From NCBI GenBank assembly GCA_001899765.1, contig MKWM01000057.1:1-34643 (forward strand): a DNA stretch of 34,643 nt. Reading direction: 5' to 3'. The position numbers were made by a program, and so were the translations under genes. Shown piece by piece: positions 18,503 through 31,609 of the stretch (the stretch's first letter is position 1; each line of letters starts with the position of its first letter). Under the pieces are notes generated by a model that worked only from the letters and a program-made list of their open reading frames with translations, searched no databases and was not told the DNA's origin. This stretch comes from Thiobacillus sp. 63-78 (GTDB lineage Bacteria; Pseudomonadota; Gammaproteobacteria; Burkholderiales; Thiobacillaceae).

Positions 18503-18781
18503 TCAGAACCTGGGCGATTCCTTTGGCGGTGTGTATGGGGTTTCGCCGTCGCCATAGAACCGCTTGCGCGTAGCTTCGGCCACCCGGTTGCACAGCACAT
18601 CGCCGAGCTTCGGGCGGTCGGTCTTGCATTGCTGGCGCAGCTCTTTGAGCCGTTCGGGGTTGGCCGCCAGTTCTTCCACTGTTGGGATTTTCGCTTCCGA
18701 AGCATTGGTCTTCTGAGGCGTTTCGGACTGACCGCAGGCCGTCAACGCGGCCACTAGTATGAAAGGAATGATCTTTCTCAT
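18503..18781 (-). CDS. eexN: EexN-type entry-exclusion lipoprotein
   Basis: A 92-residue lipoprotein with a signal peptide and lipobox ALTAC (Cys 16). The mature part, NPERLKELRQQCKTDRPK then DVLCNRVAEATRKRFYGD, fits small EexN/TrbK-type exclusion proteins that block uptake of a second copy of the element. It overlaps the stop of the upstream LysR gene by 4 nt (ATGA), so translation is coupled. It resembles TrbK in this window, and its end (GETPYTPP) resembles the end of TrbJ. The start at 18781 gives the proper signal peptide; the frame is open further upstream inside the LysR gene. Confidence 0.75.
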   Translation of the reverse strand: MRKIIPFILVAALTACGQSETPQKTNASEAKIPTVEELAANPERLKELRQQCKTDRPKLGDVLCNRVAEATRKRFYGDGETPYTPPKESPRF

Positions 18782-19722
18782 GGCGCAGGTTCCTCCAGGG
18801 AATCGGATTGATGGCCCGGCGTGGGCCTTGGGGATTCCGGTGACTCGATGGCCTGCACGCGATCGATGAAACGTGTCAGCACATCGGACGGCTTGCCTTC
18901 GGGGCACAGCAGGTAGGTCGTCAATGGCGGTACGCCCAGCGCCAGTGGTCGGGCTACCACGCCAGATTCAGGACTGGCGGCAATGCGTGCCGCACCCGCG
19001 AATCCGAGTGCGAAGCCGGCTGACACCAGCGTCATCATCAGGTCGCATGATGCGACTCGTTCTGCGACCAATGGCTCCATGTCCACCCGACGCAGTATCC
19101 GATCAAAGTGTCTGGCAGGCCCTTCGCATACCTTTGGATCACACAGGACAAGCGGATAGCGCAGCAGTTCATCGAGGGGAATGCGCTTGTGGGCCAGCAG
19201 CGGATGCCGTGCTGGCACTGCCACCATGAGCGCATCGCTCCAGGCGGGGATAGCGACGATACCGTCGCCCACCTCATCGGACTGCGCGAATCCCAGGTCG
19301 TACAGATCGTCATGCAGCCCCTTGATTTGCTGCGACAGTGGCACCTCGAAGAAGCGGATTTCAACCTCGGGTTCTTCTTGCCGGCAGAGCGCCAACAAGG
19401 CCGGCAGACGCGAAGGTGTAATGCCATCAGAAAGTGCGATGCGCAACTGGCCGTGGAAGCCGTTGGCGGCAGCCTTCACGCTGTCACGGGCCTGCTGCAA
19501 GGCGTTGAATACACGCGGAACATGATCCAGAAACAGCTTGCCCGCGCAGGTCAACCGCGTGCTGCGCGTGGTGCGGGCGAACAGCACCACGCCGAGTTCC
19601 TCTTCCAGCTCCTTGATGGCACGCGACAACGGCGATTGCTCAATATGCAACTTCTCCGCTGCTCGGGCGAAGTGCAGTTCTTCGGCTACAGCCAAAAAGC
19701 ATCGCAGGTGTCGCAGTTCCAT
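18778..19722 (-). CDS. LysR-family transcriptional regulator (TraR position)
   Basis: A 314-residue LysR-type regulator. Residues 1-60 (MELRHLRCFLAVAEELHFAR, then AAEKLHIEQSPLSRAIKELE) are the winged helix-turn-helix; the remainder is the periplasmic-binding-like effector domain. It lies directly upstream of the EexN-like gene and traG, the position of the regulator called TraR in Tn4371-like ICEs, so it is a candidate controller of transfer. However, only 15 bp separate its start from the glyA stop. There is little room for its own promoter, and it is probably co-transcribed with the metabolic genes. Whether it senses a cargo-related metabolite is unknown. Confidence 0.88.
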   Translation of the reverse strand: MELRHLRCFLAVAEELHFARAAEKLHIEQSPLSRAIKELEEELGVVLFARTTRSTRLTCAGKLFLDHVPRVFNALQQARDSVKAAANGFHGQLRIALSDGITPSRLPALLALCRQEEPEVEIRFFEVPLSQQIKGLHDDLYDLGFAQSDEVGDGIVAIPAWSDALMVAVPARHPLLAHKRIPLDELLRYPLVLCDPKVCEGPARHFDRILRRVDMEPLVAERVASCDLMMTLVSAGFALGFAGAARIAASPESGVVARPLALGVPPLTTYLLCPEGKPSDVLTRFIDRVQAIESPESPRPTPGHQSDSLEEPAP

Positions 19723-19737: not shown

Positions 19738-21009
19738 TTAGCGGTACACGGGATGGCGGCGACAGAGATCCACCACCTGCTCACGCACGCGGTCACGTAC
19801 CGTCGCCGGGGCATCGCCACCAGCCTCCTGTGCATCCAGCACGTCGCACAGCCAGCCCGCGAGCTGTTCGCACTGGGCCACGCCGAAGCCGCGTGTGGTC
19901 ACGGCGGGCGTCCCGATGCGAAGTCCTGACGTGACGAACGGCGAGCGCGGGTCGTTGGGCACGGAGTTCTTGTTCGCGGTGATATAGGCGGCGCTCAAGG
20001 CCGCATCCGCATCCTTGCCGGTGTAGGGCTTGGCGGACAGGTCGATCAGCATCAGATGGTTGTCGGTGCCGCCGGAAACGATCTTGTAGCCGCGCTGCTG
20101 GAGCACGGCGGCCATCGCGCGGGCATTGGTCACGACCTGACGCTGGTAGGTCTTGAACTCCGGGCGCAGCGCCTCCTTGAAGGCCACCGCCTTGGCCGCG
20201 ATGATGTGCATCAGCGGGCCACCCTGGATGCCGGGGAACACGGCGGAATTGAGCTTCTTATAGAAATCTTCGTCCTGCCCCTTGGCGAGGATGATGCCGC
20301 CGCGCGGGCCGCGCAGTGTCTTGTGGGTGGTGCTGGTCACGACATGGGCATGGGGCAGCGGATTCGGATACTCGCCCGCCGCCACCAGGCCGGCGACGTG
20401 CGCCATGTCCACCCAAAAGATCGCGCCTGCCTTGTCGGCGATGGCGCGCATGCGCGCCCAGTCCTTGTGGCGCGAATACGCGGAGAAGCCGCCGATCAGC
20501 ATCTTCGGCCGAGTTTCCAGCGCGATGCGCTCCATCTCGTCGTAGTCGATGAACCCCGTTTCAGGGTCAAGACCGTAAGGCACGATCTTGTAGTGCCGGC
20601 CGGAGAAATTGGACGGGTTGCCGTGGGTCAAATGGCCGCCCTGGGCGAGGTTCATGCCCATCACCGTGTCGCCGGGATTGGTCAGTGCGAGGAATACCGC
20701 CGCGTTGGCCTGGGCGCCGGCGTGGGGCTGAACATTGGCATAGTCGCAATCGAACAGCTCCTTGATGCGCTCGATGGCGAGGCGCTCGGCCACGTCCACG
20801 TATTCGCAGCCGCTGTAGTAGCGTTTGCCAGGGTAGCCCTCGGCGTATTTGTTGGTGAATACCGAGTTCTGGATACGCATCACCAGCGGGCTGGCGTAGT
20901 TCTCGGAGGCGATCAGCTCAACGTGATCCTCCTGCCGGTTTTCCTCGTGCTCCAAGGCTTGGGCCAGTTCGGGGTCGAAGTCGTTGAGCGTGAACAAGGT
21001 GTCGTACAT
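19738..21009 (-). CDS. glyA: Serine hydroxymethyltransferase
   Basis: A full-length 423-residue serine hydroxymethyltransferase, a PLP enzyme converting serine and tetrahydrofolate to glycine and methylene-tetrahydrofolate. Family landmarks are [13 protein letters not shown] near the N-terminus, [34 protein letters not shown] and the PLP lysine in [12 protein letters not shown] near residue 230. All expected active-site regions are present. It follows the kinase-aminotransferase gene by 58 bp and has AGGA upstream of its ATG. Hosts normally have a chromosomal glyA, so this is a second, mobile copy. It could serve a dedicated pathway, or supply a drug-insensitive enzyme; nothing here decides between them. 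Confidence 0.96.
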
Positions 21010-21067
21010 GGGTATGTCCTATCGTTTGGAATGTCTTGCTTGGGGCATGTTCTGGCCGGCCCGAATG

Positions 21068-23233
21068 TCATCCTTCTGCCTTCGCTTGCGCGGCAGCTTC
21101 CGCGATGGTGTCTTTCGCCGCACGCGATGACAGCAGGCGAGCGAGACGCACCACGATGTCGTCGATCTGCATCTCGTCGCAAATCAGTGGTGGCAGCAGC
21201 CGGATAACGCTGCCACGGGTGACGGTGATGAGCAGGCGTTGTTCCGCCAACGCGCGGCCGACCAGTTCCGTGCAGTCCTTGTCTAACTCGATTCCGATCA
21301 TCAAACCCTGACCACGGATGGCGGTGACGTTCGGGTGGTCGCCCAGCGCCTTTTGCAGGCTGGCAAGCAGGCGCGCTCCCAGCATGGCGGCGCGCTTCGG
21401 CAGTTCGTCACGGGCCATGATGTCCAGCACAGTGCAGCCGACCCGGCACGCCAGCGGATTGCCGCCGAAGGTCGAACCATGCTGGCCGGGCGAGAACAGG
21501 TCGGCCGCTGCGCCGCGTGCAAGACAAGCACCAATCGGAAAGCCGTTGCCCAGCGCCTTCGCCACCGTCATGACGTCGAGGGTGATGCCGGCATGTTGAT
21601 GCCCGAACCATGCACCCGTGCGGCCCATGCCTGTCTGGACTTCGTCGAGCATCAGCAGCCAGCCGTGCCGGTCGCACAATGCCCTCAGTTCGCGCAGATA
21701 GTCGGCACCTGCAACCCGGATGCCGCCTTCGCCCTGTACCGGCTCGATCAGCACCGCCACGATGTCAGGCGATTGCTCTGCTGCCTGCCGAACGGCGTCA
21801 ATGTCGTCGTAGGGCAAGCGCAGGAAGCCAGGCAGCAGTGGCTCGAAGCCGCTTTGCTTTGCGAGGTTCCCCGTGGCGGACAGCGTGGCGATGGTGCGGC
21901 CGTGAAAGCCGTTCTCCATCACCACGATCTTGGGATTCGCAACCTGCTTGCGGTGGCCGTGCAGCCTTGCCAGCTTGAGCGCGGTTTCATTGGCCTCCGC
22001 GCCGGAATTGCAGAAGAACGCCCTCTGCATACCCGTCAACGTGCATAGCCGCTCGCCCAGCCGCTCCTGCCAGTCGATGCGAAAGACATTGGAGGTATGC
22101 AACAGCGTACCGGCCTGCTCGGCGATGACCGCCGCGATTTCAGGGTGGGCATGACCCAGGCTGGTGACGGCGACGCCGGCGATGGCGTCCAGATATTCCA
22201 GGCCTTGGTCATCCCAAAGCCGTGCGCCGCTGCCGCGCACAAAGGAAACAGGCTGGCGGGCATAAGCCCGCATCAGGTGGGAAGTCGCAGGTTGCATGGA
22301 AAGATCCTCTTTTCCGATCTGGTAGGTGAACTGGCGGACGCACTCTTGCGCCTGTGACGGGCCATCGCCTTGACGAGGCGCCATCGGCGGCAAAAGCAGC
22401 TCGGCGCATTGCAGCCGCTGGGTAAGGCGCAGTGCTTGCACGACCAGACGGCATGCCTGAGCGGTGGCGTGCGGCACGCTGGCCCCGTTGAGCCAGCACC
22501 CGGTCAAGGTGGCGCAGAACAGGTCACCCGTCCCTTTGGGGGTGGCGTCGATGCGTGGATGCCGGATGACCTCTGTCTGTGTGCGTGTGACCAGTACCAC
22601 CTGCATTTCGTCGTGCGGCCAAGTGTCAGGCGCGGCGCTTGTCACCGCGACCCATTGGGTACGTCCCGCCAGCAAGGTGCGGGCAGCGGCGACCACGTTT
22701 TCCACGCTGTTCACCGCCATTCCCGTGAGGTGTGCCAACTCAAAGCCGTTCGGCGTCAATCCATCGGCCAGCGACAGCAGGTGGCGGCGGTAGGCATCGG
22801 CGATGCCCGGACTGACGTATTCGCCGTGGTCATGGTCGCCAAGCACGGGATCGACCACGACCCGCAATGCGGGTTGCGCGTCGATTGCTTGGCCGATCCA
22901 GCCACCCAGTGCCTGCGCCTGTTCCGGACTGCCGAGATAACCAGTGAGAATCGCCCGCAGTGGGGCCAACAAGCCTCGCTCGGACAGGTCACGAAGATAG
23001 CCGTCGAACCAGGCGGCAGGCATGGGGCCGCCGTGGATTGTCGGATAGTGCGGCGTATTGCTGAGAATCACCGTGGGAACGGCCGCAACGGTCAGCCCCT
23101 GCGCTTGAAGCGCGGGCACGGCCACATTGTTGCCGACACGGCCATAGACGACCTGCGACTGGATGGAAACCACGTCAATGGGCAGCGGCCGAAGCAACGC
23201 AGGCTCGGCGCAGGCAGCGGCAAGCTCCGTCAA
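21068..23233 (-). CDS. Pyridoxal kinase fused to class III aminotransferase
   Basis: One 721-residue open frame with two complete enzymes. Residues 1 to about 290 resemble PdxY/PdxK pyridoxal kinase (VVSIQSQVVYGRVGN, VVDPVLGDH, and the anion-hole/catalytic motif GTGDLF with Asp 237). After a linker of about 25 residues, from Met 313 onward, comes a class III aminotransferase of the acetylornithine/ornithine type (FFCNSGAEANETALKLAR, LMLDEVQTGMGRTG, PLP lysine 559 in AKALGNG, HGSTFGGNPLAC). The start is TTG with AGGGGGAG 5 nt upstream, overlapping the yggS stop. An in-frame ATG at 22297 has its own AGAGGA site, so the aminotransferase may also be made alone. The natural substrate of the aminotransferase is not evident. 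Confidence 0.88.
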   Translation of the reverse strand: MTELAAACAEPALLRPLPIDVVSIQSQVVYGRVGNNVAVPALQAQGLTVAAVPTVILSNTPHYPTIHGGPMPAAWFDGYLRDLSERGLLAPLRAILTGYLGSPEQAQALGGWIGQAIDAQPALRVVVDPVLGDHDHGEYVSPGIADAYRRHLLSLADGLTPNGFELAHLTGMAVNSVENVVAAARTLLAGRTQWVAVTSAAPDTWPHDEMQVVLVTRTQTEVIRHPRIDATPKGTGDLFCATLTGCWLNGASVPHATAQACRLVVQALRLTQRLQCAELLLPPMAPRQGDGPSQAQECVRQFTYQIGKEDLSMQPATSHLMRAYARQPVSFVRGSGARLWDDQGLEYLDAIAGVAVTSLGHAHPEIAAVIAEQAGTLLHTSNVFRIDWQERLGERLCTLTGMQRAFFCNSGAEANETALKLARLHGHRKQVANPKIVVMENGFHGRTIATLSATGNLAKQSGFEPLLPGFLRLPYDDIDAVRQAAEQSPDIVAVLIEPVQGEGGIRVAGADYLRELRALCDRHGWLLMLDEVQTGMGRTGAWFGHQHAGITLDVMTVAKALGNGFPIGACLARGAAADLFSPGQHGSTFGGNPLACRVGCTVLDIMARDELPKRAAMLGARLLASLQKALGDHPNVTAIRGQGLMIGIELDKDCTELVGRALAEQRLLITVTRGSVIRLLPPLICDEMQIDDIVVRLARLLSSRAAKDTIAEAAAQAKAEG
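22305..22310 (-). promoter_or_regulatory. Internal ribosome binding site before aminotransferase
   Basis: AGAGGA on the minus strand lies 7 nt before the in-frame ATG at 22297-22295, where the aminotransferase domain begins (MQPATSHLM). It suggests either internal initiation within the fused frame or a relic of two once-separate genes. Confidence 0.55.
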
Positions 23234-24045
23234 TTTGTCTCCCCCTCTCCGGCCGACGGCCAGTAGTAGGCATCTGGCGTGGCCCTTGCGCCGAAGATGG
23301 CTTGCCCGACGCGCACCACGGTCGCACCTTCCTCAATGGCGATTTCGTAGTCGCCGGACATGCCCATCGACAATTCGTCCAGGCTGATCCCGGCAGGGGC
23401 ATCCTGCCGCAGCCGGTCACGCAGACCACGCAGGAGCACGAAGCACTCTCTTACCCGTTCGGCTTCGGCCGAGAACAGCGCCAGCGTCATCAGGCCGCGC
23501 ACCCGCAGCGCCGAGAACGCCGGCAGCTCACGCAGGAAAGCGGCCACCTCGTCCGGCGGCAACCCGTACTTGCTGGTTTCCCCCGACGTGTTGACCTGCA
23601 CGAACACATCCAGCCCACGCCCCTCGGCTTGCAGGCGTCGTTCCAGCGCCTCGGCCACGCGTAGGCTGTCGAGCGCCTGGAACTCGGTAGCGAAGCGCGC
23701 CACCAGCTTGGCCTTGTTTGTTTGCAGGTGTCCGATGACCGACCATTGCAGGTCTGTCAGGTCTGCCAGCGCCTCCCATTTCCGGTAAGCCTCCTGCGGC
23801 TTGTTCTCGCCCAGCGCGCGACAGCCGGCTGCGTAGGCCAGGCGCAGGCTCGCCTCGGGCTTGGTCTTGCTGACCGGCAGCAGGCGCACACCGGTGGGAT
23901 CGCGTCCGACGCGCTGACAGGCCGCCGTAATACGGGCATGAACCGCCGCCAGGTTGTGGCGGAAATCCTCCACCGATTCCGCCTGCGGCCAGCGTCCATG
24001 CTGGTCATGCTGGGTGGAAGTGTCCAAGGGAATGTCAGTGTTCAC
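23230..24045 (-). CDS. yggS: YggS/PLPBP-family PLP homeostasis protein
   Basis: A 271-residue member of the YggS (PLPBP) family, fold-type III PLP-binding proteins without known catalysis that buffer PLP and affect amino-acid pools. The PLP lysine is K60 in LLPVSKTKP. Other family motifs are RALGENKPQEAYRKW, WSVIGHLQTNKAK, VNTSGETSKYGL, and LSMGMSGDYEIAIEEGATVV with RVGQAIFG. I take the GTG at 24045, preceded by AGAGGC; the frame stays open upstream but runs into the promoter region. The N-terminus is about 24 residues longer than in E. coli YggS and is His/Gln/Asp-rich. Its stop overlaps the TTG of the next gene. It is the first gene of the minus-strand PLP unit. Confidence 0.92.
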   Translation of the reverse strand: MNTDIPLDTSTQHDQHGRWPQAESVEDFRHNLAAVHARITAACQRVGRDPTGVRLLPVSKTKPEASLRLAYAAGCRALGENKPQEAYRKWEALADLTDLQWSVIGHLQTNKAKLVARFATEFQALDSLRVAEALERRLQAEGRGLDVFVQVNTSGETSKYGLPPDEVAAFLRELPAFSALRVRGLMTLALFSAEAERVRECFVLLRGLRDRLRQDAPAGISLDELSMGMSGDYEIAIEEGATVVRVGQAIFGARATPDAYYWPSAGEGETN

Positions 24046-24113
24046 AGATAAGCCTCTTTGCCGGGAAATCCATCGCGCACAAGAGGGTGCAAGTGTTGTC
24101 GGTCCGGTGTACG

Positions 24114-24128
24114 ATTGTCCTATGCCAA
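24114..24128. promoter_or_regulatory. Candidate MocR operator, copy 1
   Basis: ATTGTCCTATGCCAA lies in the 106-bp divergent region between yggS and the first MocR gene, 24 nt before the latter's ATG. The exact reverse complement occurs at 30295-30309, before the second MocR gene. Similarity extends to a TATCA element (24133-24137, matched in the other copy). A half-like TTGTC at 24096-24100 is repeated 20 bp later at 24116, about two helical turns, as often seen for dimeric MocR regulators. It is therefore a likely shared binding site. Confidence 0.65.
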
Positions 24129-24151
24129 ACTTTATCACGTCCTAGATCATC

Positions 24152-25453
24152 ATGGAAATCGTCGGGAAAACCGCAGCGGATATCTTCGACAGCATCCGTG
24201 CGCTGACGCTGCTTGGCTCGTACAAGCCGGGCCAGGAGTTGCCTACGACACGCGATCTGGCGGCTACGCTGGGCGTCAATCGCAACACGGTGGCTATGGC
24301 TTACAAGCGGCTGGCGGCGGCCGGTATCGCGGTCACGCAGGGGCGCTTGGGCACGTTCATCCGCAAGCAACCAGACCCCGGCGAGCAGGAAGGATTGCTA
24401 CCCGACTCGCCGCTGGCCGACCTGGGCAGCGGCAATCCGAATCCTGTCTGGCTGCCCGACATCGGCGCAGCCTTGAAGCGCAAGCCATACCGCCCACGCC
24501 TGTATGGCGAGCCCACCGTTGATCCGGAAATGGAAGTCCTTGCGCGGCAGGCGCTGACGGGCGACTGCCCCGAACAGTTCGAGGTGAACCTGACGAGCGG
24601 TGCGGTGGATGCTATCGAGCGCCTGCTGACGGCGTACCTTGTCGCAGGCGACAAGGTGGCGGTCGAAGATCCGTGTTTCATCGGCAGCGTCAACACCTTG
24701 CGCATCGCCGGGCTGCAAGCCGTAGGTGTGCCTGTCGATACCCAGGGCATGGGCGCCGAAGGGCTGGAGCGAACCTTGGCGCAGGGTGCGCAGGCAGTCA
24801 TCGTCACGCCACGCGCGCACAACCCCACGGGCGTCAGTCTGAGTGCGGCGCGCGCTCGCAAGCTGCGTGCAGTGCTGGCGCGCTATCCGCATGTGCTCGT
24901 CATCGCCGATGACCATTTCTCGCTGCTGGCGGCGGCCGACTACCACGATGTCATCCCACCCACGGCCATGCGCTGGGCGTTGATTCGTTCGGTGTCCAAG
25001 ATGTTCGGCCCCGATCTGCGCTTTGCCTTTGTCGCCAGCGATGAACAAGCCGCCCAGCGGCTGCGCTTGCGCCTGGCGCCGGGTATGAATTGGGTCAGCC
25101 ACCTGTTGCAAGATGCCGTCGCGGCCTGCCTGTCTTCGCCGGACGTTGCCATGCAGCTTGCCCAGGCCCGCGAGGACTATGCGAGGCGGCGGGAACTTCT
25201 GGCCACCGCCCTCGGCGCGCGAGGCATCGCCGTCACTTCGCCTGCCGATGGCCTGAACCTATGGCTGCCACTGCCGGAAAGCAGTCAATCCGTGGTGCTG
25301 GCGTTGGCGCAGCGCGGCTGGCTGGTGCGCGGCGGCGAAGCCTTTGCCGTGCAGGCATCGGCACACGGGCTACGTATCACGGTTTCAACCATCGACGAGT
25401 CAAGCGCCCAAGCGTTCGCCAACGTACTTGGCCATGTGCTCGCTCAAGGGTAA
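24152..25453 (+). CDS. MocR/PtsJ-type regulator (GntR-aminotransferase fusion)
   Basis: A 433-residue MocR-family regulator. Residues 1-70 form a GntR winged helix (YKPGQELPTTRDLAATLGVN, then RNTVAMAYKRLAAAG). The rest is a fold-type I aminotransferase-like PLP domain with the PLP lysine K283 in SVSKMFGPDLR, plus ARAHNPTG-like PRAHNPTG and IADDHFSLL. Characterised relatives (PdxR, GabR, PtsJ) sense PLP or its adducts; PtsJ represses a pyridoxal kinase gene. Divergence from the yggS and kinase genes fits control of PLP supply. A clear ribosome binding site is missing. It is about half identical to the second regulator at 30308-31609, and both have 433 residues. Confidence 0.92.
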   Translation: MEIVGKTAADIFDSIRALTLLGSYKPGQELPTTRDLAATLGVNRNTVAMAYKRLAAAGIAVTQGRLGTFIRKQPDPGEQEGLLPDSPLADLGSGNPNPVWLPDIGAALKRKPYRPRLYGEPTVDPEMEVLARQALTGDCPEQFEVNLTSGAVDAIERLLTAYLVAGDKVAVEDPCFIGSVNTLRIAGLQAVGVPVDTQGMGAEGLERTLAQGAQAVIVTPRAHNPTGVSLSAARARKLRAVLARYPHVLVIADDHFSLLAAADYHDVIPPTAMRWALIRSVSKMFGPDLRFAFVASDEQAAQRLRLRLAPGMNWVSHLLQDAVAACLSSPDVAMQLAQAREDYARRRELLATALGARGIAVTSPADGLNLWLPLPESSQSVVLALAQRGWLVRGGEAFAVQASAHGLRITVSTIDESSAQAFANVLGHVLAQG

Positions 25454-25515
25454 CGCCGACTGGCCCACAGGATTTGGGATGCTGGGGCGGCTGCCGCCAC
25501 GGCACCCGAATAGCC

Positions 25516-25533
25516 CGATGGCTGCGGCCATCG
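25516..25533 (+). terminator. Possible weak terminator hairpin after MocR gene
   Basis: CGATGGC (25516-25522) and GCCATCG (25527-25533) pair perfectly around a TGCG tetraloop. They are followed by AATTCGTTGTTT, a poor T-tract. It lies in the 110-bp gap before the next gene and could end or attenuate the regulator's transcript. Confidence 0.35.
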
Positions 25534-25563
25534 AATTCGTTGTTTCATCACTGGAGAATGTCC

Positions 25564-25800
25564 ATGACGACCAAAGCCATCTTCTATCACGCCGGTTGCC
25601 CGGTCTGCGTTGCTGCCGAACAACAGTTCGCCACGGCGCTTGACCCACAGCGCTACGCGGTCGAGATCGTCCACCTTGGCGAGTCCAAGGAACGCTTGTC
25701 GGAGGCCGAAGGCTACGGAGTCAAGTCCGTGCCCGCCCTGGTCATCGCAGACCAACCGTTCCACATCAACTTCGGCGCCAGTATTGAGCAGTTGCGCTGA
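25564..25800 (+). CDS. Small thioredoxin/glutaredoxin-fold protein (CPVC)
   Basis: A 78-residue protein of thioredoxin fold. It has a CPVC redox motif at residues 12-15 after the first strand (KAIFYHAGCPVC). The cis-proline segment KSVPALVI comes in the second half, as in glutaredoxins and small thioredoxin-like proteins. The ATG at 25564 is preferred over the one at 25558 because GGAG lies 7 nt before it. No signal peptide is present, so it is cytoplasmic. It is followed by a 12-bp inverted repeat and then a CPGC redoxin gene, suggesting a small thiol-redox pair. The substrate is unknown. Confidence 0.85.
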   Translation: MTTKAIFYHAGCPVCVAAEQQFATALDPQRYAVEIVHLGESKERLSEAEGYGVKSVPALVIADQPFHINFGASIEQLR

Positions 25801-25806
25801 GCGACA

Positions 25807-25844
25807 CCCTGCGGAGCGTGGCCAATGCGCTGCGCTCCGCAGGG
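25807..25844 (+). terminator. Strong GC-rich hairpin between the two redox genes
   Basis: CCCTGCGGAGCG (25807-25818) and CGCTCCGCAGGG (25833-25844) form a perfect 12-bp stem around a 14-nt loop, starting 6 nt after the upstream stop codon. No T-tract follows, so it is not a standard intrinsic terminator. It may stabilise the upstream message 3' end or attenuate read-through. Confidence 0.5.
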
Positions 25845-25902
25845 CCTCACCCGCTGTCCGCCGCCAGTAAGAGATTCACTCTGACATCCACAGGAGCACG
25901 AC

Positions 25903-26464
25903 ATGAGCCAGATCATTCAACAGAACCCGCCGACCTGGGAGGTTGAGCGCTGGCTCAATACACCGCAGCCGTTGAGCCTGGAGAGCCTGCGCGGAAAGGT
26001 GATCGTGCTGGAAGCCTTCCAGATGCTTTGCCCTGGCTGCGTGCTGCATGGTCTGCCGCAGGCGACCCGCGTGCACCAGACCTTCCAGCCGTCGCAGGTG
26101 GCCGTCGTCGGGCTGCACACGGTCTTCGAACACCATGACGCCGACCGCGCTGCAGGCATTTCTGCATGAGTACCGGATCGGCTTTCCCGTCGGCGTCGAT
26201 CAACCCGACGGTCGCGGTGGCCTGCCGCTCACGATGCGCGCCTATGGCCTGCGGGGCACGCCGACATTGCTGATCTTCGATGCCCTGGGCAGGCTGCGGC
26301 ATCACCGTTTCGGTCAGGTCGACGACCTGTCGCTGGGCGCGCAAATCGCGGCACTGATCCTGGAGGGCCAGGCATCGTCCGATGAGGTGGCACCCATACC
26401 AGCTCCCACTACCGCAGCGCCCGGATGCCGCGACGATACCTGTATGTCAGGAGATGAGCAGTGA
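25903..26464 (+). pseudogene. Frameshifted redoxin (TlpA/peroxiredoxin-like, CPGC)
   Basis: The first frame (25903-26169) begins MSQIIQQNPPTWEVERWLNT and has the redoxin motif with CPGC at residues 43-46. It then runs out of homology after VFEHHDA and stops. The rest of the protein is in another frame from about 26135 (MTPTALQAFLHEYRIGFPVG, then LPLTMRAYGLRGTPTLLIFD) to the stop at 26464. The two halves together make one ordinary redoxin of about 185 residues. The break near 26134-26143 is explained by loss of one 8-bp unit from a tandem ATGACGCG/ATGACGCC, which is my reconstruction. AGGAG precedes the ATG. Unless a sequencing error is involved, the gene is inactive or yields a truncated 88-residue protein. 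Confidence 0.8.
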
Positions 26465-26555
26465 TTGCCCCTTTTTCTTCGGTACCAGCAATGCCATGCA
26501 CTCACGTGGGCATCCACACGACCGTGTTTCCACATCATAGACAGAAAAATTTCCT

Positions 26556-27983
26556 GTGCCCATCTTGCTGAGCGGACTCCCTGTCCTGTCCACCATACTC
26601 GCATTGGCTTTCGGCATGCGCTCACTCCATGCCGCGTGTCTTGGCGTGGCATCTGCCGTACTTGCGATGCTGTTGGCGTTCCCGACTCCAGTGGAAAGCC
26701 TGCTGTCGGCCGCATGGAGTTGGCTTCCGATCATGGTTGAGGTGCTGCTGATCGTCGCCGGCGGACTCCTGTTGTCCGAGGTCTTGCGCCAGTCCGGCGG
26801 GCAAGCCGCCCTGGCCGGCTGGATTCGGGACCGCAGCGGCCACAGCGTGAGCACGATCCTGCTGGTCGTGCATGGCGTCACCCCGTTTGCGGAAGCGCTG
26901 ACGGGCTTCGGCATCGGCGTGACCATCGGTATACCACTGCTGGCCCATTTCGGTCTTTCACCACGCAAGGTCGTCGTGGTCGGCCTGCTTGGCCTGTGCG
27001 CGATTCCGTGGGGCTCGATGGGGCCGGGAACCCTGATTGCCGCCAGCATGTCCGGCGTGAGCTTCCACGATCTGGGCGTGGCCTCGGCCGTCGTCAACAT
27101 CGTTCCGTTCGTCGTGACCGGCATCGTCGCCGCGTGGCTCACCAGCCCTGTCGAGCAGCGGGTCAGCGCCGTGGTGCAAGGTGCGCTCTCGGGCATCGGC
27201 CTAACCATCGCGGTCGCGGTGATGAACATGGTATTCGGCACCGCGCCCGCTGGCGCGTTGGGAGCACTGATCATGGCCGCAGTCCATCTGCTGCGCGCGG
27301 GCCGGGACGAGAACGCCGCCGCGCTGCAAGACGTCGGCCGCAAGGCGCTGACCAGCTACTTGCTGATTCTCGGCGGGGTACTGGTTGCGGGCTGGGTCGT
27401 GCGGTTGGCGGGCTTGTCCGAGAACTGGCGCTACGTGGCCTCGCCCGCGCTCTGGCTGTTCATCGCAGCCGCCTGGTTCGCCCGTGGCGTGCCGGAAAGG
27501 CAAGCGACGCTCCGGGCCTGGAAATCATGGGGGCAGGTCGCGCCGATCACGGGCCTGTTCATCGTGCTGGGCATCCTGATGGCGGTGTCCGGCATGGCCG
27601 CGTTTCTGGCTCAGGCGCTTGCCTCGATGGGGCAGGCCTACCTGCCGATAGCCCCCTTCGTCGGCGCAGTGGGCGGATTCGTGACAGGTTCCAACTCCGG
27701 GGCAAACGCGATGTTCGCCACGACACAGGCGGAGATCGCGCGCTCGCTTGGCCTGGACGTGCTGTGGTTCATGGCGGTTCACAACGTGGCAGCCGCCTTC
27801 CTCCTGATGGCGTCGCCGGGCAAGGTGGAGATGGCCATCCAACTAGCCGGCGACAGCGCAGCCGAGCAACGGCGCTGGATTCAGGCAACGGTGCTATGGG
27901 TCGCGTTCGCCGTCGTCGGGATTCTTGCGCTCGTCAACACACTGGTGATTGGCGGCTACGCGGCCAATTTCTTACGTGGATAG
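26556..27983 (+). CDS. Lactate-permease (LctP) family transporter
   Basis: A 475-residue polytopic membrane protein with about 12 hydrophobic segments. Two family signatures are visible: VTPFAEALTGFGIGVTIGIP in the first half, and GGFVTGSNSGANAMFATTQA in the second, resembling the LctP/GlcA lactate-glycolate permease motifs. Family members import 2-hydroxy acids with protons. It is shorter than the usual roughly 550 residues and the true substrate may differ. The start is GTG at 26556, with only a weak AGAAA upstream, 91 bp after the redoxin remnant. It converges with the MFS gene, 48 bp away. Given the aminotransferase, aldolase and hydroxymethyltransferase nearby, a carboxylate or amino-acid-derived substrate is plausible. 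Confidence 0.8.
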   Translation: MPILLSGLPVLSTILALAFGMRSLHAACLGVASAVLAMLLAFPTPVESLLSAAWSWLPIMVEVLLIVAGGLLLSEVLRQSGGQAALAGWIRDRSGHSVSTILLVVHGVTPFAEALTGFGIGVTIGIPLLAHFGLSPRKVVVVGLLGLCAIPWGSMGPGTLIAASMSGVSFHDLGVASAVVNIVPFVVTGIVAAWLTSPVEQRVSAVVQGALSGIGLTIAVAVMNMVFGTAPAGALGALIMAAVHLLRAGRDENAAALQDVGRKALTSYLLILGGVLVAGWVVRLAGLSENWRYVASPALWLFIAAAWFARGVPERQATLRAWKSWGQVAPITGLFIVLGILMAVSGMAAFLAQALASMGQAYLPIAPFVGAVGGFVTGSNSGANAMFATTQAEIARSLGLDVLWFMAVHNVAAAFLLMASPGKVEMAIQLAGDSAAEQRRWIQATVLWVAFAVVGILALVNTLVIGGYAANFLRG

Positions 27984-28009
27984 CCACTATCGTCGGGCGA
28001 TTTCAGTGG
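27984..28009. terminator. Possible bidirectional hairpin between convergent genes
   Basis: CCACT (27984-27988) pairs with AGTGG (28005-28009), with inner ATCG/CGAT pairing, in the 48-bp gap between the convergent permease and MFS genes. The stem is short and no T-tract is seen, so termination is only a possibility. Confidence 0.25.
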
Positions 28010-28031
28010 GTTCGGTCGACGAGCTGGAAAA

Positions 28032-29264
28032 TCATCTGGATGTGTTCCTGCTGGATTCCATAGACTGCTCGAAGAACGACAGCAGTGCAGCCATTGCAAT
28101 CAAGCAAATGCCGATAATGAGTGGGGCCTTGACAGACCCTTCGACAAGCACGCCTGCGACCGCAGTTCCGGCGGAACCCGCTGTGATCTTCATCGCCGCA
28201 ACCCAAAGGAATACTTGTCCACGTCCTTTGGCCGGTGCGTACTCGGTGCGGGCAGCCAGCGTGGCGGCGAAGAAGAACGCATTGAGCACCCCGGCAATCC
28301 AGTAAGTCAGCAGGGCGAGCAGGAAGGTTTGGCTCATCATCACCGCGATCAAACCGCCGATGACGCATAGCGCCAACATCGTCATCAGGCGATCAGGCTC
28401 ACCACGCAGCGGGCGGAACATCACGCCAACCGATCCTGAGAGATTGCCGATACCGTAGGCGGCGGTCATCGCGGCTGCACTGGCGGCTGCAACCCCGAGA
28501 ACAGAGGTCATATAGACCGCCGTGATGGGCAGGGCCGCCATGCCGAAGGCCACCAGCATGGTCATATACAGGGTGCGGCGCAGGCGGCCATCTCTGAGCA
28601 TAAGGGCGACCGTCTGCCAGGCACCCGGAACACTGCGCACGTCGCCCCCATGTTCGGGCGCACTGTAGGGCAGCCGCATCACCAGCCAGGCAGAACAGAA
28701 AGCCGCTGCCGCCAACAGCAATCCAGCCACCATCGGCGAGGCCCAGGCCGAAGCAGCGGCCACCACCGATGGGCCGACGGTACCGCCGATCCCATAGGTG
28801 GCAACATCCCAACCTTGCGCGCGACGTTGGCTACGCTGGTCGCCGCCGGCGATGGCCGGCAATCGGGTGCTGATCCCCCCCATCATCAGAGGACCGCAGC
28901 ACCCGGCAATGACAAGAAGAACGCCAGTCAGGATGAGGGGCGCGTGCCCATAGCTGGCAAATGCCGCAGCGAGCGACACCGAGCAGAGCACACATCCCCA
29001 CGCAATGACCTTGCGGCCATCATCGGCCAGATCAATACGCCTTGCAATGAAGGGGCCAAGCAGGTGCGGCGCAGTAATACATGCGGCAAGGAAGCCGGCA
29101 ACATTGCCACTGCCGCCCTGCATGGTAACGAGCAGTACGACGGCGACAATGGCGCCGCCATCGGTCATGCGGGCCAGCGTCGCCGCGATGACATAACGGG
29201 CCAGGCCAGACCAGTCGGCTCCTTTCGCGGGGGCAACACCGCTGGTGGGAAGCTCCAGGCTCAA
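28032..29264 (-). CDS. Major facilitator superfamily transporter
   Basis: A 410-residue membrane protein with about 12 hydrophobic helices in two halves (LARYVIAATLARMTDGGAIV at the start, VAFGMAALPITAVYMTSVLG and LLALLTYWIAGVLNAFFFAA in the second half). The cytoplasmic loop after helix 2 has ARRIDLADDGRKVIAWG, similar to the MFS motif A region. It is likely an exporter or symporter; nothing identifies the substrate. The start I use is TTG at 29264, 34 nt after the stop of the DapA-like gene, with GGAAG upstream; no ATG gives a better N-terminus. It is the second gene of the unit facing the second MocR regulator and is probably controlled by it. Confidence 0.8.
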   Translation of the reverse strand: MSLELPTSGVAPAKGADWSGLARYVIAATLARMTDGGAIVAVVLLVTMQGGSGNVAGFLAACITAPHLLGPFIARRIDLADDGRKVIAWGCVLCSVSLAAAFASYGHAPLILTGVLLVIAGCCGPLMMGGISTRLPAIAGGDQRSQRRAQGWDVATYGIGGTVGPSVVAAASAWASPMVAGLLLAAAAFCSAWLVMRLPYSAPEHGGDVRSVPGAWQTVALMLRDGRLRRTLYMTMLVAFGMAALPITAVYMTSVLGVAAASAAAMTAAYGIGNLSGSVGVMFRPLRGEPDRLMTMLALCVIGGLIAVMMSQTFLLALLTYWIAGVLNAFFFAATLAARTEYAPAKGRGQVFLWVAAMKITAGSAGTAVAGVLVEGSVKAPLIIGICLIAMAALLSFFEQSMESSRNTSR

Positions 29265-29298
29265 AGGCTTGGCTTCCGGGCAAGCAGACCGAAGGGCG

Positions 29299-30192
29299 TC
29301 ATGCCAACCCCAACTCGTCCAGCATCACGGCAAGTTGCTGGCGTTCCGCTCCATCCACAGCCATGAGTGGCAGTGGCAGGCTGGGTGACGGCACCAGGCC
29401 ACGTAGTTCGGCTGCCGCAGCGACGACGCGCAGGCTCCCGCCGTACTTGCCAAACAGCGCCCACAACGGCTTGAGGCGATCCGAAAGCCTCATGGCTTCT
29501 TCTGCATGGCCTGCCTGGGCCGCCCGCGTGATAGCCACCGCCACTTGGGGAAACAACCCGCCAATCACCGAGTACCAGGCTTCGCAGCCGGCATTCAGGC
29601 CTATTGCGGCGCAGGCGTCCCCGCTGACTCCGATCGTGACGTGCGAAGGGATCATGCCCCGCAGATGATCGACGCGCGCCTTGGCAGCCGCGGGATCGGC
29701 CGGCACGCCGGGGATCTTGATCGAACACACATTCGGCAACTGCGCGATGCGACCATGAAGCTCGTCGGTGAACTCGAAGTGGGTGGTGCCAGGGTTGTCG
29801 TACACACACAGCGGCACCGACAGTTGGCGTGTGACGGCTTCATAGAGTCCGAAAACCTCATCGCCGGTCAACTTCTGGTAGGACACCGGTGCCAGCAATA
29901 CGCCGCTGGCGCCCGCTTTCTGCGCGTCATCGGCCAAGGCGAGTACATCGCGAGTACGCACGGCGCCAATGCCGACGATCACTGGAGTACCACCGGCATG
30001 TTCAACCGCGAGCCGTGCCACCCGTGCCCGTTCGGCTATCGTGAGATAGGCATAGCTGCCAGTTGATCCGAGGGCGCAGATGGAATCCACCCCGGCAGTG
30101 GTCAATCGCCGAACCAAAGAAGCAAATGCCGCCTCGTCGATACCATCCCCACTGATCGGGGTAAGGGGAAATGCACTGAGGCCAGAAAACAT
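29299..30192 (-). CDS. DapA-like lyase (dihydrodipicolinate synthase family)
   Basis: A 297-residue class I aldolase/lyase of the DapA/NanA family. The family motif GSTGSY appears near residues 43-48. The catalytic tyrosine is Y131 (VYDNPGTT) and the Schiff-base lysine is K159 (CSIKIPG), at spacings close to E. coli DapA. Such enzymes join or split pyruvate (or a related oxoacid) and an aldehyde; the altered binding motif means the substrate need not be aspartate semialdehyde. The ATG at 30192 is preceded by AAAGGAG; the upstream-open frame to 30243 has no merit. It diverges from the second MocR gene across a 115-bp region containing the shared operator. Confidence 0.87.
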   Translation of the reverse strand: MFSGLSAFPLTPISGDGIDEAAFASLVRRLTTAGVDSICALGSTGSYAYLTIAERARVARLAVEHAGGTPVIVGIGAVRTRDVLALADDAQKAGASGVLLAPVSYQKLTGDEVFGLYEAVTRQLSVPLCVYDNPGTTHFEFTDELHGRIAQLPNVCSIKIPGVPADPAAAKARVDHLRGMIPSHVTIGVSGDACAAIGLNAGCEAWYSVIGGLFPQVAVAITRAAQAGHAEEAMRLSDRLKPLWALFGKYGGSLRVVAAAAELRGLVPSPSLPLPLMAVDGAERQQLAVMLDELGLA

Positions 30193-30294
30193 GCGTGAAC
30201 TCCTTTGTTGATGCCGATGGGCGGAGGAAAATAGGCGGTTCATGTACCTGTACCGCCATGTTCAGGTTAGTATTGTCACGAGCGTAATGATACA

Positions 30295-30309
30295 TTGGCA
30301 TAGGACAAT
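30295..30309. promoter_or_regulatory. Candidate MocR operator, copy 2
   Basis: TTGGCATAGGACAAT is the exact reverse complement of the site at 24114-24128. It overlaps the first two bases of the second MocR gene's ATG (30308-30310) and contains its only AGGA (30302-30305). A further ATTGTC at 30272-30277 faces GACAAT at 30304-30309 as an inverted half. Binding here could block both initiation and translation signals of the regulator and control the divergent DapA-like gene. Confidence 0.65.
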
Positions 30310-31609
30310 GATAAAGATTGCAGGCAAGACCGCCGTTGAAATATCGGAGAGCATCCGCACGCTGATGCGGGACGGTGAGCTGCGGCCTGGGGACTCGTTG
30401 CCGCCTGTGCGCGAGCTGGCGGAAGTGCTTGCGGTCAACCGCAACACTGTCGCGGCCGCCTACCAGCGGCTGGTGAAGATGGGCATTGCCCTGACCCAGG
30501 GCCGCTTAGGAACCACCCTATGCGAACCGCCCCACGCGGGAGAGCAGGAAGGTTTGAGCGTGGGAACGGCGTTGATCGACCTGGCCGATGGCAATCCTGA
30601 TCCACGGTGGTTGGCTGATGTGACGACTGTGCCAGCCGACTGCCTGCCCAAGCCGTTCCTTTACGGCGAGGACACGATCCTTCCGGCTCTTCGGCAGTTG
30701 GGTGACAAGTGGTTCGGGCCAGACTGTCCTGCCCGGTGGACGCTTGAATTGACTCACGGGGCGGTTGACGCCATTGAGCGCCTGGTTACCGCTCATCTGG
30801 CGCCAGGCGACAAAGTGGCCGTGGAAGATCCCTGTTTTCTTGGCACCATCAACGCAGTGCGCCTGGCGGGAATGCAGGCGGTGGGTGTGGAAATGGATGA
30901 GGCCGGGATGCAGCCGGATGCGCTGGCGGCAGCCTTGGACAAAGGCGCGCGCGCGGTACTGCTCACACCCCGCGCCCACAATCCAACGGGTTGGAGCCTG
31001 ACCAAGCGCCGCGCAGAAGCATTGAGGCGCGTCCTCGGGGCGCACCCGGATGTGCTGGTCATCGCCGATGACCATTTCGCCCTGCTCGCCGAAACGCCAT
31101 ATCACTCCGTCATTCCCGCCTCGACAGCGCATTGGGCGCTGGTGCGCTCTGTTTCCAAGGGCTTGGGGCCGGATTTGCGCCTTGCTTTCGTGGCCTGCGA
31201 TTCCGAGACAGCGGAAAGATTGCAAACGCGGCTGGCGCCCGGAATGACGTGGGTGAGCCACATCCTGCAAGCCATTGTGGTCGCCTGTTTGACCTCCGAG
31301 GAAGTGCGGCAGCAGCTCAATGGTGCCCGTGAGGCCTATGCGAGCCGCCGCAACGAACTGCGTACCGCCTTGTTGGCACAGGAGATCGACGTGTCACCCA
31401 GTTCAGGAGGACTCAACGTATGGGTGCCGTTGCCCAAGGCTGAGAAGGATGTTGCCTATGCACTGGCCAAGAGGGGCTGGTTGGTTCGGTTGGGTAGCGC
31501 ATTTGATGTGCAAGGCGAGTGTCAGGCCATCCGTGTCACTGTATCCAAGTTGCAGGATGGACAGGCACAGCGTTTTGCGCTTGATCTGAAGGCTTGTCTT
31601 AGCTCGTAA
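30308..31609 (+). CDS. Second MocR-type regulator, paralogue of the first
   Basis: A 433-residue MocR regulator. It has a GntR winged helix at about 1-70 (LRPGDSLPPVRELAEVLAVN, then RNTVAAAYQRLVKMG) and an aminotransferase-like PLP domain with the lysine near 284 (SVSKGLGPDLR) and PRAHNPTG. The ATG at 30308 was chosen because it aligns with the start of the other MocR protein (M-x-x-x-GKTA) and gives the same length. Upstream in-frame starts at 30287 and 30242 would read through the operator. Only AGGA 2 nt before the ATG is present, so initiation may be weak or leaderless. It faces the DapA-like and MFS genes, its likely targets. Confidence 0.9.
   Translation: MIKIAGKTAVEISESIRTLMRDGELRPGDSLPPVRELAEVLAVNRNTVAAAYQRLVKMGIALTQGRLGTTLCEPPHAGEQEGLSVGTALIDLADGNPDPRWLADVTTVPADCLPKPFLYGEDTILPALRQLGDKWFGPDCPARWTLELTHGAVDAIERLVTAHLAPGDKVAVEDPCFLGTINAVRLAGMQAVGVEMDEAGMQPDALAAALDKGARAVLLTPRAHNPTGWSLTKRRAEALRRVLGAHPDVLVIADDHFALLAETPYHSVIPASTAHWALVRSVSKGLGPDLRLAFVACDSETAERLQTRLAPGMTWVSHILQAIVVACLTSEEVRQQLNGAREAYASRRNELRTALLAQEIDVSPSSGGLNVWVPLPKAEKDVAYALAKRGWLVRLGSAFDVQGECQAIRVTVSKLQDGQAQRFALDLKACLSS

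What the first reader, a model, noticed from the sequence alone, without database searches (positions are those of the whole stretch)
19738..31609. Mobile PLP (vitamin B6) module: kinase, carrier, PLP enzymes and two PLP-type regulators
About 12 kb between the transfer regulator and the relaxase holds a YggS PLP-binding protein, pyridoxal kinase, class III aminotransferase, serine hydroxymethyltransferase, two MocR regulators, a DapA-like lyase, two transporters and two thiol-redox genes. Making and handling PLP next to PLP-consuming enzymes suggests one dedicated pathway. Two readings are open: catabolism of an unusual amino or hydroxy acid, or protection against an antimetabolite that traps PLP or inhibits GlyA or aminotransferases. 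Family assignments are seen in sequence; the joint function is inference.
Basis: partly seen in the sequence, partly recalled or inferred. Interest (0 to 1): 0.8.

Follow-up and report, generated by a model that had tools for sequence, protein, structure and literature searches.

The report
Mobile vitamin-B6 enzyme backup island
A transferable DNA element carries its own vitamin-B6 kinase, carrier, sensors and spare copies of B6-dependent enzymes, a set that in some related bacteria sits beside genes for making hydroxylamine (a poison that reacts with the active vitamin), so it is probably a portable protection kit.

Summary
The gene set is real, conserved, and sits in the cargo slot of an IncP-type (Tn4371-like) conjugative element. 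Corrections: pdxK and the class III aminotransferase form one 721-codon frame (both domains in 13 of 120 listed database hits); both MocR genes pass the PtsJ cut-off; one redox gene is split over two frames. Relatives mostly keep MocR | benE-yggS-(pdxK)-argD-(trpBA)-glyA. The enzymes look like isozymes of biosynthetic enzymes, against catabolism. The combination was described in 2016 as part of in-silico PdxR regulons. Not found in my searches: a link to hydroxylamine. In 298 Pseudomonas genomes all 9 with close DnfA (hydroxylamine-forming Dirammox cluster) carry the module ArgD within 10 kb, against 5 of the other 289; in the Delftia family 3 of 3 against 6 of 291. Relatedness is not corrected for. 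A yggS-family gene is tenfold up in nitrifying Alcaligenes (PMC8629993). Best reading: a mobile PLP-supply and spare-enzyme island against PLP-trapping nucleophiles, hydroxylamine the best candidate. No experiment shows this.

The parts
18778..19722 (-). LysR-family regulator bordering the cargo slot (77-80% to the LysR in the same place of pBYT5-1 and pKAZ5)
19738..21009 (-). glyA: serine hydroxymethyltransferase isozyme; PHAGAQ loop at residues 95-100
   Evidence: 88-90% to the pBYT5-1 and pKAZ5 copies, 60% to the host's own GlyA
21068..23233 (-). pdxK-argD fused frame, 721 aa: kinase about 1-290, class III aminotransferase 313-721; internal ATG at 22297 with a GAGGA stretch before it
23230..24138 (-). 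yggS: PLP homeostasis/carrier protein (COG0325 family); likely start near 24045 by alignment (inference)
24114..24128 (-). putative PtsJ operator TTGGCATAGGACAAT between yggS and ptsJ1 (picked by eye)
   Evidence: 12-base core also in L005
24152..25453 (+). ptsJ1: MocR-type B6-salvage regulator; PLP-site Lys in SVSK
   Evidence: (650 bits, cut-off 573)
25564..25800 (+). 78-aa thioredoxin-like protein (CPVC)
25903..26464 (+). redoxin gene, split over two frames here (25903-26169 and 26048-26464)
   Evidence: uninterrupted AhpC/TSA-type relative in L005
26556..27983 (+). LldP-like (lactate permease family) transporter
28032..29264 (-). MFS transporter
29299..30243 (-). DapA/DHDPS-family lyase, likely start 30192 (inference); Lys and Tyr motifs kept; 70% to the DapA of pBYT5-1
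30295..30309 (+). second exact copy of TTGGCATAGGACAAT, overlapping the likely start codon of ptsJ2 (30308, inference)
30242..31609 (+). ptsJ2: second PtsJ-type regulator, 55% identical to ptsJ1
   Evidence: (601 bits, cut-off 573)
31665..34037 (-). RlxS-type relaxase, other border of the slot (not part of the function)
16320..18320 (-). IncP-type TraG coupling protein of the conjugative element
   Evidence: 1222 bits

Best explanation
A mobile PLP-protection island. When the PLP pool is trapped by a carbonyl-reactive nucleophile (hydroxylamine is the best-supported candidate), the PLP-binding PtsJ regulators lose their ligand and derepress the set. PdxK, here fused to the aminotransferase it may load, makes fresh PLP from pyridoxal; YggS carries it; the spare isozymes GlyA and ArgD (in some relatives also TrpB with TrpA) keep glycine/one-carbon, arginine (or lysine) and tryptophan synthesis going. 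The lactate-permease-like, DapA-like, MFS and redox genes would be accessory: alpha-keto acids soak up hydroxylamine as oximes, and the MFS protein may export the poison. Shown: the gene set, its conservation, its place on conjugative elements, intact catalytic motifs, PtsJ identity, the single frame of pdxK-argD and the genomic tie to dnf. Inferred: trigger, derepression, direct hand-over, accessory roles and the tolerance phenotype.
For: (1) Conserved unit: in 50 loci (window, 2 plasmids, 47 of the 80 loci) yggS 47, glyA 40, benE 39, longer MocR 36, PtsJ-type MocR 5. (2) Isozymes: the host has its own GlyA (60%), ArgD (58%) and TrpB (70% to the module type); the best other match to the kinase part is 23%. 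Catalytic motifs are kept, including TrpA Glu49/Asp60 and the TrpB Lys in pBYT5-1 and pKAZ5 (roles recalled). (3) Both regulators pass the PtsJ cut-off; in Salmonella PtsJ represses pdxK and binds PLP (PMC12172467, PMC13353753, passages). (4) Both ptsJ genes share a 15-mer near their starts (picked by eye), with versions in L005, L046 and L048, not L064. (5) Dirammox tie: close DnfA (81% or more) in 9 of 298 Pseudomonas genomes, all 9 with module ArgD within 10 kb, against 5 of 289 others (Fisher p 4e-14); in the Delftia family 3 of 3 against 6 of 291 (p 2e-5). Order gat-dnfB-dnfA | dnfT2 | MocR | dnfT1 | benE-yggS-argD-glyA, dnfT1 lacking in the Delftia-type loci. (6) The Alcaligenes dnfT1RT2ABCD cluster itself holds a transaminase, a MocR, an SHMT and a PdxK; dnfABC makes hydroxylamine in E. 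coli (PMC9136411, passages). (7) A yggS-family gene rises from 207 to 2028 TPM in nitrifying against non-nitrifying A. faecalis (PMC8629993, section 4 parts 1-2 of 3); transaminases and hydroxymethyltransferases rise too (PMC11160463, passages). (8) A. faecalis JQ135 tolerates its own hydroxylamine 'via some unknown mechanisms', with the same IC50 (2.5 mM) without dnfA (PMC11440038, passages). (9) Hydroxylamine-fed sludge enriched Thauera, Alcaligenes and Comamonas (PMC11192851, passages); Thauera and Comamonas are among the carriers.
Against: No growth, expression or enzyme data exist for this island. 41 of 50 module loci show no DnfA in the stretch held (up to 10 kb each side, several cut by contig ends); the host has no DnfA match, so any hydroxylamine would be external. 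The dnf tie is phylogenetically clustered and the DnfA query came from a module-bearing locus; the Fisher p-values ignore relatedness, and several sampled genomes are the same as my earlier loci. With all 14 DnfA matches the count is 9 of 14 against 5 of 284 (p 8e-11): five weaker matches (58-63%, four with a stop flagged) lack the module ArgD at E 1e-170, although two of them have a 58% ArgD-like gene beside a MocR. The module ArgD match of G575 has one stop flagged. I did not test whether Alcaligenes carries benE-yggS-argD-glyA. Authors have proposed conversion of hydroxylamine to harmless products as the tolerance route (PMC9355588, passages). PtsJ loss did not change the pyridoxal need of a Salmonella pdxJ mutant (PMC12172467). 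Other PLP poisons (2-aminoacrylate, cycloserine, hydrazines, aminooxy acids) would predict the same gene set.
Confidence: 0.52

Rival explanations
1. General PLP-shortage response without a poison: a mobile PdxR/PtsJ regulon that scavenges vitamin B6 and replaces PLP enzymes when B6 is scarce, like zinc-sparing paralogues under Zur (recalled).
For: Gene set matches published in-silico PdxR regulons (PMC5320631, sections 10-11 read); PtsJ-type regulators; BenE proposed there as putative pyridoxine transporter.
Against: Does not explain adjacency to dnfABC; the spare enzymes also need PLP.
Confidence: 0.25
2. Protection against 2-aminoacrylate or amino-acid-like PLP-enzyme inhibitors (cycloserine, vinylglycines, aminooxy acids).
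For: GlyA is a demonstrated 2-aminoacrylate target (PMC12172467, passages); a GNAT gene in 1 and an MFS gene in 9 of 50 loci (pBYT5-1 queries) would fit detoxification and export.
Against: No RidA-type, alanine-racemase or IlvE-type family among the cargo proteins scanned; the dnf tie points to hydroxylamine.
Confidence: 0.12
3. Catabolic pathway for an unusual amino or hydroxy acid: lactate-permease-like uptake, aldol cleavage by DapA- or GlyA-like enzymes, transamination.
For: LldP-like and DapA-like genes; an isocitrate-lyase/PEP-mutase-family gene in pBYT5-1 and a relative of it in pKAZ5.
Against: GlyA and ArgD are close to biosynthetic enzymes; trpA/trpB in 7 of 50 loci, with catalytic residues intact where checked; lldP and dapA are variable (2 of 50 loci each by pBYT5-1 queries at 50% identity) while yggS-argD-glyA are near constant.
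Confidence: 0.06
4. A separate question: the pdxK-argD fusion is only a neutral lost stop codon; ArgD is made from its own start and the fusion has no function.
For: The internal ATG is kept in fused and split forms, mostly with a GAGGA-like stretch (11 loci); 9 of 13 loci with both genes are split.
Against: Fusion kept in a clade of six rows (support 100/100, two of them near-identical) and in a second set; 13 of 120 listed database hits hold both domains.
Confidence: 0.4

Closest known systems
PdxR-type MocR regulons of Proteobacteria (Suvorova and Rodionov 2016, PMC5320631)
   Same: pdxK, ArgD-family aminotransferase, GlyA, COG325 (YggS family), BenE, amidotransferase, acetyltransferases, DapA under a MocR factor
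   Different: There an in-silico regulon; here on a conjugative element, PtsJ-type regulators, fused pdxK-argD, no benE in the window, trpBA in some relatives
ptsJ-pdxK vitamin B6 salvage of Salmonella
   Same: PtsJ repressor and PdxK kinase
   Different: Two ptsJ genes, plus YggS, GlyA, ArgD and transporters; on a conjugative element
Dirammox cluster dnfT1RT2ABCD of Alcaligenes
   Same: MocR regulator, SHMT, PdxK, transaminase; in Pseudomonas and Delftia a dnf cluster lies directly beside this module
   Different: Window has no DnfA, DnfB or DnfT1 match and one SHMT only, so it is not a Dirammox cluster
Tn4371-type ICE cargo (name and layout recalled)
   Same: traG-trb core, LysR, RlxS, cargo between them
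   Different: Cargo is a PLP module; integrase, att sites and excision not examined
Zur-regulated zinc-independent paralogues (recalled, no call)
   Same: Backup isozymes switched on when a cofactor is short
   Different: Cofactor is PLP and the spare enzymes still use it

Membership tests
PdxR/PtsJ-type MocR regulon | MocR regulator of the B6 group | tested here: met
   Both pass NCBIfam PtsJ cut-off 573 (650, 601 bits)
PdxR/PtsJ-type MocR regulon | Regulated B6 gene (pdxK) adjacent | tested here: met
   pdxK lies in the divergent gene run next to ptsJ1, behind yggS; regulation itself not tested
PdxR/PtsJ-type MocR regulon | Shared operator at regulator and target promoters | tested here: inconclusive
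   Same 15-mer at both ptsJ starts, picked by eye; versions in L005, L046, L048, not L064; no binding data
Dirammox (dnf) cluster | DnfA di-iron N-oxygenase with DnfB and DnfC | tested here: not met
   No DnfA match in the genome, no DnfA or DnfB match in the window; DnfA is present in 9 of 50 module loci
Tn4371-type ICE | IncP-type traG/trb core with RlxS-type relaxase | tested here: met
   TraG 1222 bits (cut-off 674), TrbG 294 (cut-off 181); RlxS 654 bits, below the curated 850; same layout in pBYT5-1; the family's definition is recalled
Tn4371-type ICE | Integrase, att sites, excision | not tested
   The window is the stretch given of contig C57; integrase and ends not searched
Hydroxylamine-tolerance determinant (works like) | Raises tolerance to hydroxylamine | not testable with these tools
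   Only genomic association and published expression in another species
RidA / 2-aminoacrylate defence | RidA-family enamine deaminase | tested here: not met
   None among the cargo proteins scanned

The most novel reading that the evidence does not exclude
A transferable hydroxylamine-tolerance island: bacteria living with hydroxylamine makers (nitrifiers, Dirammox strains that use it against neighbours) pick up by conjugation a kit that rebuilds the trapped PLP pool, and in it evolution has welded the PLP-making kinase to a PLP enzyme so that cofactor passes directly, a natural case of protein-to-protein PLP delivery. The GlyA of the kit has an invariant Ser-to-Ala pair in its PLP-phosphate loop, perhaps to speed exchange of damaged cofactor.
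Probability: 0.35. Interest if true: 0.86.

Novelty: new variant of a known kind. Interest (0 to 1): 0.7.

Why it matters
It offers a testable answer to two open points: how heterotrophic nitrifiers and their neighbours survive hydroxylamine ('some unknown mechanisms', PMC11440038, passages), and whether PdxK hands PLP directly to apo-enzymes in the cell (left open in PMC13353753, passages). It would also make PLP protection a transferable trait in wastewater bacteria.

Tried and rejected
Disfavoured: simple catabolism (isozymes of biosynthetic enzymes; variable lldP/dapA). Rejected: sequencing error as the cause of the fusion (uninterrupted in 4 of 13 loci with both genes; 13 of 120 listed database hits). 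Rejected: the second yggS of the host on C64 (62%) as a second module copy; its neighbours are HipA-, FAD- and bile-acid-symporter-type genes. Inconclusive: TGGTCTG/CAGACCA upstream of the longer MocR genes (39 of 60 within 300 bases; mean 2.4, largest 7, in 200 plain base shuffles); mostly 8 bases before the assumed start, so it may be partly coding, and related sequences inflate it; a likeness to the published DnfR box is recalled, not checked (PMC8939314 not held). The ArgD signature search found only four positions fixed differently (90% in both groups) from canonical ArgD, too few to infer a new substrate. The class-wide DnfA search found 0 of 369; the positive control matched 4 of 4. Structure prediction of the fusion was asked for twice and never ran because the queue was full. 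Literature searches for the module, for the fusion and for a PLP-hydroxylamine link listed no paper whose title or abstract start makes that link; of the Dirammox papers I saw only passages or part of one section, and most subscription papers are not held.

Rows dropped: of 80 loci (ArgD 68% or more) were used as module loci and the other 33, plus the host's own ArgD, as canonical ArgD. The GlyA comparison looked at 49 of the 50 module loci (not L064); 40 gave a GlyA covering 80% or more; its 30 canonical GlyAs come from the host and its relatives. The ArgD tree used 49 module rows (one fell below 80% coverage) and 9 of 34 canonical rows. The fusion tree left out P0013 (both domains, 471 aa, off-pattern), P0014 (kinase only) and L076 (near copy of L009); P0002 and P0012 are near-identical to L005 and L018. 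One search scored only the 8000 candidates sharing most words.
Full report
What is there. The window is bases 1-34643 of contig C57 of an unnamed 3.2-Mb genome. It carries an IncP-type transfer region (Tn4371-like; that name is recalled): trb genes, TraG (16320-18320), a LysR regulator (18778-19722) and an RlxS-type relaxase (31665-34037). Between LysR and relaxase lies the cargo: glyA, a pdxK-argD frame, yggS, ptsJ1, a small thioredoxin, a split redoxin, an LldP-like permease, an MFS protein, a DapA-like lyase and ptsJ2.

It travels. In plasmids pBYT5-1 (L003) and pKAZ5 (L004) a related cargo lies beside the same LysR; in pBYT5-1, where both borders are seen, it fills the same slot: lysR-glyA-trpA-trpB-argD-pdxK-...-yggS-benE | MocR and further genes. 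Identities to the window: GlyA 88-90%, ArgD 81-87%, YggS 78-82%, PdxK 62-64%, DapA 70% (pBYT5-1 only). On plasmids it is rare: 3 of 72,556 records hold an ArgD at 80% or more. Relaxase, LysR or TraG also flank the module in L005, L006, L009/L076 and L046 and L188. An ArgD tree mixes Comamonadaceae, Zoogloeaceae, Halomonadaceae, Pseudomonadaceae and Alcaligenaceae (SH-aLRT only, 17 of 55 branches open). In the host's genus none of the 35 other genomes shows the module-type GlyA: 28 have only matches of 60-66% identity and 7, all under 90% complete, have no match at E 1e-100.

It is one unit. One genome scan with the ArgD part gave 80 loci; 47 with 68% or more identity, the window and two plasmid loci make 50. 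In these: argD 50 (by choice), yggS 47, glyA 40, benE 39, the longer MocR 36, PtsJ-type MocR 5, amidotransferase 18, pdxK 13, trpA and trpB 7 each (several loci are cut by contig ends). The order MocR | benE-yggS-(amidotransferase)-(pdxK)-argD-(trpBA)-glyA recurs in most.

Spare biosynthetic enzymes. The host has its own GlyA (60%), ArgD (58%) and TrpB (70% to the module type); the best other match to the kinase part is 23%. Catalytic motifs are intact in GlyA, ArgD, PdxK, YggS, both PtsJ and DapA, and in the TrpA and TrpB of pBYT5-1 and pKAZ5 (residue roles recalled). This argues for isozymes, not for a new catabolic pathway, but no activity is known. All 40 module GlyAs compared read PHAGAQA where 25 of 30 canonical GlyAs (the host and its relatives) read SGSQA, as does the solved relative aligned; these serines line the PLP-phosphate site (recalled), so cofactor binding may be tuned.

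The fusion. In the window pdxK and argD share one frame without a stop. Of 13 loci with both genes, 4 are fused (window, L005, L006, L018) and 9 split. A protein search (647 hits at E 1e-30, 120 listed) lists 13 proteins with both Pfam domains. In a tree of 24 rows, the window and five others form a fused clade (100/100); the best tree needs five changes of state and the starred branches force at least two. The internal ATG, mostly with a GAGGA-like stretch before it, is kept in fused and split forms, so both a fusion and a separate aminotransferase may be made. PdxK and YggS pass PLP to apo-enzymes in vitro, and whether PdxK does so in vivo is stated to be open (PMC13353753, passages).

Regulators. 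Both MocR proteins pass the PtsJ cut-off. In Salmonella, PtsJ represses pdxK (about 80-fold rise without it) and binds PLP. TTGGCATAGGACAAT occurs exactly twice in the window, upstream of ptsJ1 and over the likely start of ptsJ2; with up to three mismatches 0.31 matches are expected and 4 of 100 shuffles reach two. I chose it by eye, so the count is not an independent test; a 12-base core recurs in the ptsJ1-yggS gap of L005 (the other two loci listed there are the window's own DNA) and variants stand in L046 and L048, not in L064.

Known or not. The combination was reported in silico in 2016 as PdxR regulons (PMC5320631, sections 10 and 11 read, other passages). I found no paper tying it to a conjugative element, to the fusion or to hydroxylamine in the listings.

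The Dirammox link. Nine module loci (eight Pseudomonas, one Delftia) also hold a DnfA-like di-iron N-oxygenase, ten a DnfB-like reductase and twelve a DnfT1-like class V aminotransferase. The Alcaligenes cluster dnfT1RT2ABCD is annotated as transaminase, MocR-like PLP-dependent aminotransferase-family protein, SHMT, di-iron N-oxygenase, 2Fe-2S protein, glutamine amidotransferase and PdxK, and dnfABC makes hydroxylamine in E. coli (PMC9136411, passages). I name the Pseudomonas genes after it by family and order; I did not align them with Alcaligenes sequences, but dnfABC homologues are reported in Pseudomonas cedrina (PMC11440038), a species in my set (L036). Starting from DnfA: in 298 Pseudomonas genomes 14 match, 9 of them closely (81% or more). 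All nine have the module ArgD, each within 10 kb; of the other 289 genomes 5 have it (p 4e-14 ignoring relatedness; with all 14 DnfA matches 9 of 14 against 5 of 284, p 8e-11). Leaving out the two seed genomes: 7 of 7 against 5 of 289. In 294 genomes of the Delftia family: 3 of 3 against 6 of 291. Background in a class-wide sample: DnfA 0 of 369 (positive control 4 of 4), module ArgD 2 of 369, one being the host. Of the five weaker DnfA loci, four have an amidotransferase, DnfB and a MocR next to DnfA, two of these also a 58% ArgD-like gene; the fifth lies near a contig end.

Mechanism. Hydroxylamine turns PLP into an oxime and strips it from enzymes (established chemistry, recalled). In nitrifying A. 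faecalis a yggS-family gene rises from 207 to 2028 TPM along with dnfABC (PMC8629993, section 4 parts 1-2 of 3), and transaminases and hydroxymethyltransferases rise (PMC11160463, passages). Strain JQ135 tolerates its own hydroxylamine 'via some unknown mechanisms', equally well without dnfA (PMC11440038, passages); hydroxylamine also harms neighbours, and those authors suppose that producers convert it (PMC9355588, passages). The word 'pyridoxal' does not occur in the main texts of PMC11440038, PMC12575085, PMC9355588, PMC11192851 and PMC11160463. I therefore read the island as PLP re-supply plus spare enzymes against PLP-trapping nucleophiles. The host shows no DnfA, so the poison would come from outside, which fits a mobile tolerance kit; the carriers include sludge genera, and a hydroxylamine-fed reactor enriched Thauera, Alcaligenes and Comamonas, with isolates other than Alcaligenes holding only parts of dnf (PMC11192851, passages). 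Trigger, derepression, hand-over and phenotype are inference.

Limits. Relatedness inflates the counts; 41 of 50 module loci show no DnfA in the stretch held; no structure of the fusion could be computed; Alcaligenes genomes were not searched for the full module; the roles of the LldP, MFS, DapA and redox genes are guesses.

Noticed in passing
window 2376-4211 and 4215-5948 (+): Gabija anti-phage pair: GajA (780 bits) and GajB (683 bits) in PADLOC.
   Followed up: partly
window 1266-2339 (+): AbiEii-type protein (326 bits, PADLOC) directly before the Gabija pair.
   Followed up: no
window 25903-26464 (+): Redoxin gene read in two frames; uninterrupted relative in L005. Cause (real mutation or assembly error) unknown.
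   Followed up: partly
L005 5459-6710 (-): In Acidovorax temperans two redoxin-type genes lie between ptsJ1 and lldP, so redox genes recur beside ptsJ1.
   Followed up: partly
L098 and L100-L128 versus module GlyA, window residue 97: All 40 module GlyAs compared have Ala at the two Ser positions of the PLP-phosphate loop; the 10 second-copy (dnfT2-type) GlyAs keep both Ser.
   Followed up: partly
L173, L174 (G473, G678): A second, diverged dnf-like lineage (DnfA 61-62%) also sits beside a MocR and a 58% ArgD-like gene.
   Followed up: no
L096 (G000:C64): The host has another YggS (62%) with a stop flagged in the matched stretch, beside a HipA-like gene and FAD proteins.
   Followed up: partly
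L178 (G547): Pseudomonas locus with dnfT1, dnfT2, dnfB, amidotransferase and the whole module but no DnfA match: possible loss of the oxygenase.
   Followed up: no
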